The notes below the pieces were generated by a model. That model made no database searches and was not told the DNA's origin. It saw only the letters and a list, made by a program, of their open reading frames with translations. Below, piece after piece: positions 249 through 60,425 of a DNA stretch of 64,000 nt. The stretch is taken from assembly GCA_003117195.1 (NCBI GenBank), contig BDSI01000097.1, positions 62,001 to 126,000 of the forward strand, in the 5' to 3' direction. The position numbers and the translations under genes were made by a program. The DNA comes from Eudorina sp. 2006-703-Eu-15 (taxonomy: Eukaryota; Chlorophyta; Chlorophyceae; Chlamydomonadales; Volvocaceae). The stretch's first letter is position 1. Every line of letters begins with the position of its first letter.

Positions 249-3200
249 GGAGGCGCATTGATGCATTCGTTCGGGCCGGTGTTGAAACGGCACACGCTGA
301 CGGTGATTGCGTTTCCGCCGTTGGTAAGTCCTACGTACGTATGTAGTCGCTCAGCAGCCAGCAGCCGGGGTAAAGATAAATATATACAGTAAGGTTCATT
401 CATTCATTCATATAGTTGGTGGGCGGGCGGGGTTCCGTCGTTGAAGCGAGAATCATTGCTTTTGGCAAAGGCCGTGTCGTGCGTGTCGTGCGTATGTCAT
501 GATAGCAGCACGCAGGACATCCGTCAGTTCTGATGTACGTCGAAGTGGGATGCATATATACGCATATACATACATATATAGATAAATTATATAAATCAGA
601 TGTACCGATAGATAGACATATGCGCGCGCGTGTACATACGGACGCACGACGGAGGCGGCTTTGGATAGATACGTTAGTTCCCCGCATACATGCATTAGAC
701 GTATTGACGGCTTGCTTACCCCCAGCTATGACAGCCAGCTTGTAGTTGAAGTACGCGATGGGCGTCATTGGGTCCAGTACGGCAACGAATGTCACAGAAG
801 CATCCCCTTCCGCCAGAAAATTGTTGTCGATGCTCTTGTTGGCCGAGTGGACGTTCAGCTGCACATGCATGTGTGGAAATAGAAAACACTAATAAAAAAA
901 CACATGCATAGTACGTATATATAGTACGTATATCCCCGCTTTGTGCGCCTTCGTCGAGTCTTAGCCCCGTGTGTGCGTGGCCTGTTCCGAGGGACCCCTG
1001 AGGCCCCATCATCTAGCGAGCCGGGTTTTTGGTTGGCTGGGTGGGTGTGCGGGAACTTGAGAGCAGGTCGACCCCGTTTTTGGTCTCCTTGCCGAGTGCG
1101 GAGCAGCAGCCTGCAGTCGAGTTTGCTGCTCCGGTTTGTTGCTTTTCCCAGTGCAGCGGTCGAGTAAGTCCGGCCGGGGCTCACCATGAGCCAGCTGGCG
1201 GCGGGCGTGTGAGTGCGTGTGCGTGGAGGAGTGTGAGTCTGGCGTGCGAGTGCGCGCGTGTGAGTGCTTGGCCGGCCTGCTTGCTTGGAGGGGAGCCCCG
1301 CCGGGCTCGAGCCAGGGTGTGAGGCGCGCGGCGGACATACGGACAGACAGACGGACAGACAAATCCGCGCGCCCCGCCCTGCGCTGTGGTTCGGCCCGGC
1401 AAGGGGCCCCTGGCACTCGTCCGTACGACATGTGTACGGCGAGCCGCCCACAGTGTAACACCCCCATACATATATATTATATATATTATATATATCGATT
1501 TACGTACATAGATGTGAAGGTTAATTATTTATTCATGTTACAGCGGACCCCGATTGACCCCGATTATTATTTATTATATCTTTCATATCACGCAATTGTG
1601 CAAGCAAGCCTGCTAATTAGCCTGCTGCAGTGCTGGTGACCGGTACCGAGGTTATCCGGTTGCTTGCGTACGTGCGCATGTGCGTACCTACCTTGCGGTT
1701 GAAAGTCGGCAGTAGGGAGATGTCGCCGCCGGCCTGGACCCGGAGAGCCAGGTACAAGTTCCTGCTTGCGTTGAACGCGCGCAGCGCAGATATGATAGGG
1801 CGATCGAGTGGAGCGAAATAATGAAACAAACACACACATATATACAACCCTATATATACACAAGCAAAGAGATTGTTGATATTATTAGGACGCCGAGCGA
1901 GCGACACGCATATGACACATGTATGTATGCGTGCAATTCTCCGTAGGTCCCACGTGCACAGAATACACAGAATCAGTGAGATAGGACGACTGAATTACCC
2001 TAATACTTCAAACCTGTTGCCGGAACGGCCAAGTAGTGCAAGGCCATGCAGCACATCAGATAGCAGGCGCGACTACATAGGTATATATGGATAATTAACA
2101 AGTATGCATGTCGACGACGTACGTACGTGGTGTAAGCCGTCGGGCCCAGCCAGTCGGGTTGGATTTTGATCATGACGCCCGTGGGGCCCAGGTAGGTGGC
2201 CGGCAGAGTGAAGGTGCGGTACAGCCCCGGGGCCAGAATGGAGGAGTTGAGCTGGGCAAGCGGCGTGGCCCAGCCCAAGCGCCACAGCTCGGGCGCGCTG
2301 GGGCAGCCGTCGCCCAAACCCATAGCTGAGGAGAAGTCACCGTACGGGGGCACGTCCCCAGATGCGTACCACAAGCCGACATTATTTAGCAGCCCTTGCA
2401 TGACGGTGCCCTTCTGGAAGATTCCCTGGAGGTCGAGGCGGTTTCAAGGCGAACAAAGTAATATAAGGGGGACAGCAGGTAGAGGATCGATCACGCAGGT
2501 AGGCGAGCCAACCACGCAGGCTCCAATTTCACGGTGTGCCGCGCGCCGAGCGCCTGATGACGTTATAAATGCGATGCGGCCATGCCCATAACTTGCACAT
2601 GACGAACAAGCGAGGATATATAAATGAATGCCTACGTATGCAGTTGTGCCTGCTGTCCAGGGTAAGTTATTCCACTTCCCAGCCACACACACCAACGAGC
2701 TTCTCCCCGTCGGTCTATCCCCGCCCGCCGCGCGCCGTGCAGTGGATGCATGGCGGGCCCGATGCATGTATGGTCGCGCGTCTCGTCGCTCTGTGTGTGC
2801 GCCCGCGGCCCATCAATCAATGGGCAATCATGCACATGCCAAGCCGTTTAGGCCGTTTGAGATTATGTAATTTATTCATTATTATATATGTATGTATATA
2901 TAATTGTCATAATTATACAATTACATATACATATATATACGTACGTCATTCATTTATCAATTTATTCATTGTCATAGCATGTAAAGCAATCCCAAGCCAA
3001 CGTGGGTCACTAGCTAGCTAGGTTGGAAAACGTCAGGTGCGTGCGCGCATACATACGTACATACATACATCGTGCCAATTATATGGCGGGCATGCAGCAC
3101 GCAACAGTTTGACGACATAGACGATCATTCGGCTACTACATATATCCAGCAGTTCTCGACCCACGCTCATGTCAGATAGACACGCACGCACGCACTTATG

Positions 3201-59100: not shown

Positions 59101-60425
59101 CCGTACTTGCCGCATGCGCCACCGCCGCCATCGCCACCTCCGCCTCGGCCTCCGCCTCCGCCACCACCTCATCCGCCGTTGTCGCCACCCCCTTCGCCAC
59201 CGCCACCGCTCCTACCACCACCGCCGCCGCCACCTCAGCCGCCCCCGCCATCACCGCCGCCACCGTCACCGCTTCCATCCCCGCCATCACCACCACCACC
59301 ATCGCCACCATCGCCACCACCGCCATCGCCACCTCTGCGGCCGTCGCCTCCGTCGCCATCACCACCACTTCTGCCGACGTCACCCCCACGCCCTCCATCG
59401 CCTCCACCGCCAGTTCCTCCACCATACCCATTTCCGCCACCACCAACGCCGCCACCGCCTCCGCCGCTGCAACCACCATCGCCGCTGCCGCCGTCGCCCC
59501 CCTCACCCTCTCCACCGCCCCCATCCCCCTCTCCGCGCCCCCCGTCACCAGAGCCTTCGCCACCTCCACCTTCCCAACCACCATCAGCACCGCCCTCCAT
59601 GCCGCCGCCGCCACCGCCGTCACCGCCGCCGCCACCTCCTAGAACACCGTCCGCGCCCCCGCCTTCATCGCCGAACCCTCCCCCCCCGCCATCGCTCCCC
59701 TCTACACCTCCACCACCACAATCGCCCTCACGCCCATCCCCACCACCGCCCTTAGTGCCGCCCTCACAACCATCGCTGCCGTCACCACCGCCATCTCCTC
59801 CGCCGCCGCCGCCTTCTCCACCGCCGCCGCCTCCACCGCCACCGCCGCCCTCCCCGCCCCGCCTTCGCCTCCGCCCCCATCCACACCCCTTCCGCCCCCG
59901 GATGCCCCTCTACCCCCAACACCGCCCTCCACGCCACCGCCCTCGCCGCCGCCGCCGCCTCCTTCAGACCCCCTCTCACCCGACAGCCCGTCTCCGCCAC
60001 CGCCCTCGCCGCCGCCACCGCCACCTTCAGACCCCCTCTCGCCCGACAGCCCGTCGCCGCCGCCGCCTCCTTCAGACCCTCTGTCGCCCGACAGCCCGGC
60101 TCCGCCACCGCCGCCGCGCTCCGCCAAGTCACCCAAGTCACCGCCGCCGCCGAAGGCCTCGAAGCCGCCACGGCCGCCACCGCCGCCTCCCAACCCGCCG
60201 CCGCCTCCCAACCCGCCGCCGCCTCCATCCCCCGCCCCCCGTCCACCTAGACCGATCACGAAGCCTCCGCCGCCGGGCCGGCGGAGGCCGCCGCCCCCCC
60301 CAGACGATCCACCGCCGGCGTACTACATGCCGCCTCCCGATTACGGCCCTGACGAGCCCTCCCACCCTCCACCGGAGTACGGCCCGCCGCCGGATTACGT
60401 GGCCCCGCCGCCGGAAGTCAACTGA
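50174..60425 (+). CDS. Gene E: secreted M11 (gametolysin/VMP-like) protein with an exceptionally long proline-rich tail; frameshift near 59860
   Basis: Exons: 50174-50300, 50945-51018, 51577-51717, 52331-52501, 53203-53298, 54123-54213, 54902-55026, 55649-55944, 56794-56863, 57089-57227, 57658-57739, 57951-60425. Exon 1 ends with the signal core [13 protein letters not shown]. Then [10 protein letters not shown] (68), RCFLSG (115, the usual Thr replaced), [12 protein letters not shown] (exon 5, shorter by two codons), [12 protein letters not shown] (exon 7) and the site [11 protein letters not shown] (285-295): first His to Lys, third His to Asp, Glu kept; Met310. It is the most diverged copy. 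The tail is about 825 residues, mostly (SPPPPP)n. The frame that is Pro-rich from 57952 becomes Arg/His-rich near 59860, while the frame one base over stays Pro-rich to a stop at 60423-60425 with a tyrosine-containing end ([13 protein letters not shown]). A missing C in a short C run near 59863 explains this. If the base is truly absent the protein ends RKSTD at 60429. Confidence 0.83.
50494..50838 (+). repeat. (CCTG)n array in intron 1 of gene E
   Basis: About 86 uninterrupted units (345 bp), flanked by shorter interrupted CCTG runs from 50465 and up to about 50935. The array yields poly(PACL) and poly(AGRQ) frames that are not genes. Confidence 0.97.
52767..53042. mobile_element. hAT-type MITE, copy 3 (left end missing)
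   Basis: It matches the right two-thirds of 31062-31501 and ends AAGATAGCAACACTG. The left terminal repeat is absent. It lies in the intron of gene E between exons 4 and 5. Confidence 0.8.
53419..53862 (+). repeat. (TACC)n array in gene E intron
   Basis: 444 bp, about 111 uninterrupted TACC units, between exons 5 and 6. Translation gives poly(LPTY), an artefact. Confidence 0.97.
56108..56649. mobile_element. Non-autonomous TIR element with TACCGTAC-type ends (copy 2)
   Basis: The left end reads TACCGTACTGCCTCC and then ATTATTTGC. The complement of the right end reads TACTGTACTGCCTC then TTATTATTTGCGAG. The right end is duplicated in tandem (about 34 bp twice, 56579-56646). Several CTCGCAAAT motifs lie inside, as in 3514-4206. 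It lies in the intron of gene E between exons 8 and 9. Confidence 0.6.

What the first reader, a model, noticed from the sequence alone, without database searches (positions are those of the whole stretch)
249..60425. Cluster of five M11-family secreted proteins in which every copy has a degraded HExxHxxGxxH site
All five genes keep the M11 landmarks (NCSYG exon, CGW exon, Met-turn) and the same 12-exon plan, but none has a complete zinc signature. The five key positions read Q-E-H-G-N (C), K-E-H-G-D (E), Q-Q-H-G-N (B), S-Q-H-G-N (D) and Q-G-N-G-Y (A). Gametolysin uses HExxH, and Volvox VMP1 is known for QExxH. Here the third ligand is also lost in all copies. Intact frames and conserved splice phases in all copies argue against simple pseudogenes. 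A group of matrix pseudoproteases with Hyp-rich tails is the most economical reading.
Basis: partly seen in the sequence, partly recalled or inferred. Interest (0 to 1): 0.85.

Follow-up and report, generated by a model that had tools for sequence, protein, structure and literature searches.

The report
Dead-site matrix protease gene array
A volvocine green alga carries a row of secreted matrix-protease genes in which several copies have lost the residues needed to cut proteins yet are still conserved, which suggests that part of this family binds or organises the matrix instead of digesting it.

Summary
In detail: all five window genes are M11/VMP-like, with open spliced models and a damaged active site ([60 protein letters not shown]). 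Two corrections. The array continues outside the window: in the 126 kb examined it has 9 genes, 3 with intact QExxHxxGxxH and 6 degenerate. The leading Gln is this group's norm, not damage; lost are the third His (5 of 5), catalytic Glu (3 of 5) and second His (1 of 5). Decay is contradicted: dN/dS is about 0.06-0.09 on degenerate branches, and a degenerate orthologue pair with Pleodorina is nearly as conserved as an intact pair. Of 96 related domains 30 are degenerate, all lacking the third His. Degenerate domains deviate at catalytic E/H/H in 54 of 69 cells, at 33 other near-invariant columns in 35 of 754. Losses fall in 9-12 clades. New: gene B shares a conversion tract carrying the dead site with a copy 87 kb away. 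Best reading: conserved pseudoproteases, probably binding matrix glycoproteins without cleaving them. That function is inferred; no activity, metal or expression data.

The parts
249..6982 (-). Gene A, conserved core (exons 6827-6982, 5210-5377, 4453-4651 fused, 3252-3376, 2127-2425, 1692-1761, 720-858, 249-330)
   Evidence: spliced alignment to Pleodorina P0002, no stops; Pfam M11 1.6e-53
2127..2425 (-). Gene A active-site exon: QGLLNNVGLWY (Glu, second His and third His lost)
13577..17494 (-). Gene B, conserved core (9 exons)
   Evidence: Pfam M11 5.2e-61
14937..15232 (-). Gene B active-site exon: QQILHNFGLWN (Glu and third His lost)
15123..15275 (-). Gene-conversion tract shared with N4 (wider alignment at contig 164336-164713): 43 intron bases identical plus the first 110 bases of the exon with 1 mismatch; contains the dead motif
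12421..13512 (-). Proline-rich tail open frame of gene B (33 Pro in the best 40 residues)
22810..27431 (+). Gene C, conserved core (9 exons, one GC-AG intron)
   Evidence: Pfam M11 2.1e-59
25469..25764 (+). Gene C active-site exon: QEVLHNFGLWN (only third His lost)
27517..29175 (+). Proline-rich tail open frame of gene C
38539..42982 (+). Gene D, conserved core (9 exons)
37582..37810 (+). Gene D probable leader exons with a signal-peptide-like stretch (by eye)
   Evidence: model guided by P0006; not tested with a predictor
41410..41708 (+). Gene D active-site exon: SQILHNFGLWN (first Gln, Glu and third His lost)
43599..44366 (+). Proline-rich tail open frame of gene D
51577..57731 (+). Gene E, conserved core (9 exons)
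   Evidence: Pfam M11 6.1e-50
55649..55944 (+). Gene E active-site exon: [11 protein letters not shown] (first Gln and third His lost)
57886..60426 (+). Proline-rich tail open frame of gene E (847 aa)
2122..2323 (-). 3' part of gene A active-site exon, 92.6% identical over 202 bases to gene D 41512-41713 (second conversion patch, downstream of the motif)

Best explanation
The five genes encode M11 (VMP-like) proteins with proline-rich tails that are pseudoproteases. They keep the fold-defining residues, the disulfide cysteines and the Met-turn but have lost the third metal ligand, and A, B and D also the catalytic Glu. They are maintained by purifying selection for a non-catalytic role. The mechanism I think most likely: the retained domain still recognises hydroxyproline-rich matrix glycoproteins, and the protein is held in the matrix by its Hyp-rich tail, so it acts as a binder, scaffold or competitor beside the three intact proteases of the same array. 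Shown: homology, site loss, open frames, constraint, repeated loss, conversion. Inferred: absence of activity, secretion, hydroxylation of the tail, substrate binding, matrix location.
For: Motifs and spliced frames. The norm among the relatives found is QExxHxxGxxH: 66 of 96 domains with a gap-free motif are intact, 30 degenerate, and all 30 lack the third His. Site test on 77 full-length domains: the 23 degenerate ones deviate at catalytic E/H/H in 54 of 69 cells versus 35 of 754 at 33 other near-invariant columns. Two-ratio codon model on 16 genes of this genome: omega 0.088 (other exons) and 0.060 (active-site exon) on degenerate branches versus 0.134 and 0.111 elsewhere; omega=1 rejected with 2dL 326 and 214; per-gene fits for A-E agree. 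C versus D: fourfold sites look saturated (31/46 differ) yet the active-site exon is 83% identical in protein. Degenerate orthologues N4/P0004 are 61.3% identical versus 63.5% for intact orthologues N3/P0003. AlphaFold2 of degenerate P0004: pLDDT 91.7, metzincin matches; intact control P0031: 90.8, largely the same matches.
Confidence: 0.72

Rival explanations
1. Some copies remain active proteases with an altered metal site (Gln, His and Asn/Asp/Pro or other ligands), following the copper-preferring QExxH precedent.
For: A QExxHxxGxxH enzyme of Volvox is reported active with copper (PMC7717551 passages). C keeps Q-E-H; E keeps E-H with Asp at the third place; off-array M2 keeps Q-E-H.
Against: B and D have lost the Glu as well, A the Glu and both His. 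Loss of the Glu (HE to HQ) is described as loss-of-function in MMPs (PMC7717551 passage). The third His is lost in 30 of 30 degenerate domains, so no domain lost Glu or second His while keeping it.
Confidence: 0.15
2. Dead copies are kept conserved mainly by ongoing gene conversion with intact neighbours, without a function of their own.
For: Conversion patches are real: B-N4, A-D, B-N1, B-N3. Fourfold mismatch in the active-site exon is low for several pairs within the array (A-B 11/46 against 57/88 in other exons, p=6e-6).
Against: C-D show no conversion signal (31/46 and 61/87 fourfold mismatches) yet stay 83% identical in protein in the active-site exon. The other exons also show low omega. 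Degenerate orthologues in another genus are nearly as conserved as intact ones.
Confidence: 0.08
3. Decaying pseudogenes.
For: Loss of catalytic residues; the family is tandemly duplicated.
Against: Stop-free models in 6 of 6 degenerate array copies (with an aligner that penalises stops); omega well below 1; cysteines, tryptophans and Met-turn almost always kept.
Confidence: 0.03

Closest known systems
Volvox matrix metalloproteases (VMPs), peptidase family M11, QExxHxxGxxH type
   Same: Pfam M11 domain, Gln at the first motif position as norm, proline-rich tail, tandem copies
   Different: Third metal ligand lost in all five window genes; Glu lost in A, B, D; second His lost in A; first Gln lost in D and E
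Gametolysin (Chlamydomonas, M11, zinc enzyme; HExxHxxGxxH as recalled and as stated for the M11 protein Lsg2 in PMC4378016 passages)
   Same: M11 domain and Met-turn
   Different: No zinc signature in the window genes
Catalytically dead ADAMs (M12), e.g. ADAM22 with QSLAHNIGIISD (PMC11266112 Table 2)
   Same: Metzincin fold; very similar pseudo-site with leading Gln, lost Glu, second His kept, third His lost; Met kept; ADAM22 binds LGI1 through its dead domain (passages)
   Different: Separate family, so presumably an independent loss; animal membrane protein with a disintegrin domain; the structural match is shared by the intact algal control, so it is not specific
M14 pseudopeptidases that interact with collagens (PMC11266112 abstract)
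   Same: Extracellular pseudopeptidases, as a functional analogy
   Different: Different peptidase family and organism

Membership tests
Peptidase M11 (active gametolysin/VMP enzyme) | Pfam PF05548 domain | tested here: met
   A, B, C, E each above cut-off; D by its motif exon
Peptidase M11 (active gametolysin/VMP enzyme) | Complete HExxHxxGxxH or QExxHxxGxxH site | tested here: not met
   0 of 5 window genes
Peptidase M11 (active gametolysin/VMP enzyme) | Met-turn methionine | tested here: met
   Met present in 5 of 5 motif exons; 22 of 23 degenerate full-length domains
Peptidase M11 (active gametolysin/VMP enzyme) | Metal-dependent proteolysis | not testable with these tools
   no assay
VMP-like matrix protein | Proline-rich tail on the domain | tested here: met
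   proline-rich open frame downstream in 5 of 5; splice joins to the tail and hydroxylation not proven
VMP-like matrix protein | Secretion signal | tested here: inconclusive
   signal-like leader seen by eye in D only
Pseudoprotease (conserved inactive homologue) | Catalytic residues specifically lost while fold residues stay | tested here: met
   54/69 versus 35/754 deviating cells
Pseudoprotease (conserved inactive homologue) | Purifying selection after the loss | tested here: met
   terminal branches may include time before the loss
Pseudoprotease (conserved inactive homologue) | Metzincin fold kept | tested here: met
   prediction for P0004, the Pleodorina degenerate orthologue of N4, not for a window protein
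Pseudoprotease (conserved inactive homologue) | Lack of activity with a non-catalytic function | not testable with these tools
   needs protein

The most novel reading that the evidence does not exclude
The VMP-type expansion that accompanies large matrix in volvocine algae is in good part an expansion of non-catalytic matrix binders. Catalysis has been lost again and again (9-12 clades if loss is irreversible), each time including the third His, and dead active sites can pass between tandem copies by gene conversion, so that inactivation behaves as a recurrent, transferable state instead of a rare accident.
Probability: 0.3. Interest if true: 0.8.

Novelty: new variant of a known kind. Interest (0 to 1): 0.62.

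Why it matters
Growth of the matrix-metalloprotease family is cited as a correlate of larger volvocine bodies (PMC4844696 passages), with these proteins hypothesised to make matrix and break up wall components. If about a third of this group (30 of 96 domains examined) cannot cut, those counts need re-reading, and matrix assembly by binding or competition becomes a testable alternative. A Glu 17 residues after the motif start is kept in 53 of 54 intact full-length domains and lost in 14 of 23 degenerate ones; it is a possible unrecognised functional residue of these enzymes, although B, C, D and E still have it. The B-N4 tract is a concrete case of a dead active site shared by gene conversion.

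Tried and rejected
Protein-tree proof of conversion: tried and not relied on. The 77-domain tree with all columns joins A, B, C, D, N4 and P0004; the tree without the active-site exon does not. A quick AU test gave p=0.045 for the rest (SH p=0.32) and 0.0004 for the active-site exon with the motif included, with fast constrained searches that may have been poor. A fuller 33-taxon test gave p=0.10 for the rest, and p=0.42 for the active-site exon without motif columns. So one shared loss for A, B, C, D and N4 is not excluded, and the conversion claim rests on DNA. The 38-column block was chosen after seeing the pattern; the p-value survives multiplication by the 120 pairs. Codon usage as the cause of low divergence in the active-site exon: thought unlikely because C-D and most pairs with M2/M3 are not lowered in the same exon; for B-N4 the shared intron excludes it. 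Relaxed selection on dead copies: not seen; omega was slightly lower than background. Sequence search of solved structures with profile A1: 0 matches up to E 10. Papers on M11 pseudoproteases: 'Volvox carteri' + 'pseudoprotease' 0 papers; 'gametolysin' + 'catalytically inactive' 3 papers, listing only, apart from passages of PMC8643629 found with other terms, which say that most Chlamydomonas gametolysin isoforms have conserved zinc-binding sites. The pseudopeptidase review PMC11266112 has 0 hits for gametolysin, alga and Volvox and no M11 row in Tables 1-2 (section 3 read); its 2 hits for 'm11' were not among the passages shown. Only open-licence PMC papers were searchable, so absence from print is not shown. 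Heitzer and Hallmann 2002 is not held; I know it only through citing papers. The ADAM22 structural match was considered as evidence of function and dropped, since the intact control matches it too.
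Full report
What is there. The window is C97:62001-126000 of an unnamed 181 Mb genome. A whole-genome search with PF05548 lists 142 exon-level matches; only 130 of 232 candidates were scored, so this is a lower bound. A spliced alignment against homologous volvocine proteins gave stop-free models for nine tandem genes in C97:50001-176000: N1, A, B, C, D, E, N2, N3, N4. The window holds A-E. The aligner demanded GT/GC-AG and penalised stops, so neither is independent evidence, and the models of N2 and of off-array M3 are incomplete. 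The five active-site exons were re-read straight from window DNA: [60 protein letters not shown].

What lies outside the window. The neighbours include intact sites: N1 QELLHNFGLWH (contig 55276-55574), N2 QELLHNFGLWH (132227-132522), N3 QELLHNFGLYH (147691-147986); N4 (164416-164711) reads QQILHNFGLWN. In the same group off the array, K5 (RGTLNNFGLYG) and M2 (QEMLHNFGLWP) are degenerate; K1-K4, M1 and M3 are intact. So 8 of the 17 group members that I modelled in this genome are degenerate. In the related VMP2-like loci read, the third-His place is kept in 26 of 28 and lost in L049 and L053 (my count from that output; the first half of the site was not read for most of them).

Homologues. Two database searches gave 79 proteins, 77 of them named and all from Volvox, Pleodorina, Gonium, Tetrabaena, Edaphochlamys or Chlamydomonas schloesseri, and 2 unnamed. 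Both searches scored only the roughly 8000 candidates sharing most words, so they are not exhaustive, and a few hits are VMP2-like outgroup proteins. With the 17 own models these give 105 domains; 9 with a gapped motif were dropped, leaving 96: 66 intact ([QH]ExxHxxxxxH) and 30 degenerate. Degenerate of total by source (species assigned by hand from the listings): this genome 8 of 17, V. africanus 10 of 38, V. reticuliferus 4 of 11, V. carteri 3 of 8, Pleodorina 3 of 9 (all QQHGS, probably one locus), Edaphochlamys 1 of 8, unnamed 1 of 2, and Gonium, Tetrabaena and C. schloesseri 0 of 1 each. The counts include alleles and several assemblies of one species. In the 30 degenerate domains the third His is lost in 30, Glu in 21, second His in 19, first Gln in 5. 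The first Gln is therefore the normal state here and is mostly kept even where other site residues are gone.

Repeated loss. On trees of the 77 full-length domains, the 23 degenerate tips fall in 9 maximal clades with all columns and in 12 when the active-site exon is left out, counting loss as irreversible. N4 pairs with Pleodorina P0004 (support 100 with all columns, 98 without the active-site exon), and both are degenerate; E pairs with V. carteri P0025 (100 and 99), and both are degenerate; M2 is degenerate beside intact N1 (99 and 97). In the tree of the active-site exon alone N4 and P0004 still fall in one six-member clade with A-D (98), but E and P0025 do not pair. Whether A, B, C, D and N4 go back to one loss is open (p=0.10).

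Constraint. Codon models on 16 genes of this genome gave omega 0.088 and 0.060 (other exons, active-site exon) on degenerate branches against 0.134 and 0.111 elsewhere, and omega=1 was rejected (2dL 326 and 214). Single-gene tests reject omega=1 for A-E in both parts (largest p 0.027, uncorrected, B in the active-site exon); N4 is not significant in the active-site exon (p=0.095). Caveats: near-saturated synonymous sites, a home-made optimiser capped at 30 iterations, a fixed protein tree, and branches that may include time before the loss. Independent of those models, N4/P0004 (degenerate orthologues) are 61.3% identical, close to 63.5% for the intact orthologues N3/P0003; E/P0025 is lower (48.4%), next to 52.9% for intact N2/P0023.

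What changed and what did not. Of 37 columns at least 98% conserved in the 54 intact full-length domains, 4 are the Q/E/H/H of the site. At E, H, H the 23 degenerate domains deviate in 54 of 69 cells; at the 33 others in 35 of 754. Of those 35, 14 fall in one column, a Glu 17 residues after the motif start, 7 at a Leu and 5 at a Gly. Each near-invariant Cys, the Trps, the Met-turn and Asp+20 deviate in at most 1 of 23. The residue after the third His shifts from G/S/A 43/9/2 to A15/S7/G1. The domains are related by descent, so these cells are not independent. Glu+17 is lost at least once in 7 of the 9 degenerate clades, but among the window genes only A has lost it.

Gene conversion. Over the first 37 comparable codons of the active-site exon, B and N4 differ at 1 of 36 codons that encode the same residue, the lowest of 120 pairs (median fraction 0.40), against 67 of 155 in other exons (p=4.3e-7; block chosen after inspection). 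The adjacent intron is also shared: the 43 bases next to the exon are identical, and the first 110 exon bases have 1 mismatch. Codon constraint cannot explain the intron. The tract carries the dead motif. N4 has a degenerate orthologue, and B's other exons sit near intact N1/M2/M3, though with weak support (72, 31) and with a B-N1 patch of its own; so N4 to B is the likelier direction (inference). Other patches: A-D 92.6% over 202 bases after the motif; B-N1 91% and B-N3 93.5% in the preceding exon.

Mechanism. Pseudopeptidases are reviewed as acting by protein-protein interaction, and dead ADAM22 (QSLAHNIGIISD) uses the surface of its dead domain to bind LGI1 (PMC11266112: abstract, section 3 and passages). 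By analogy, A-E most likely bind Hyp-rich matrix proteins, or compete with or scaffold the intact copies. That last step is inference.

Noticed in passing
window 31580-33423: A 42-base tandem repeat with 43 copies (73% matches) between genes C and D.
   Followed up: no
window 46678-46977 and 47910-48209: A 300-base direct repeat, 100% identical, spaced 1232 bases, between genes D and E.
   Followed up: partly
window 42991-43287, 50463-50900, 53419-53863, 61888-62572: Long tetranucleotide arrays (AGGG, GCCT, TACC, TGGC; up to 172 copies); the TACC array lies in an intron of gene E.
   Followed up: no
M11 motif +17 (gene C residue 243 of the core model): A Glu kept in 53 of 54 intact full-length domains and lost in 14 of 23 degenerate ones, though it is not one of the motif ligands; candidate functional residue.
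   Followed up: partly
L049 and L053 (C7:973020 and C7:970401): Two VMP2-like copies outside this group also lack the third His.
   Followed up: no
P0069 (V. africanus): One member has HExxHxxGxxH inside the QExxH clade, i.e. an apparent return to His at the first place.
   Followed up: no
V. carteri VOLCADRAFT_91803, 91805, 91809, 91814: Same longest-contig length and close locus numbers, with one intact and three degenerate sites: probably a mixed array like this one.
   Followed up: no
whole genome G000: 181 Mb in 3033 contigs resembles what I recall of a Eudorina assembly; not tested.
   Followed up: no
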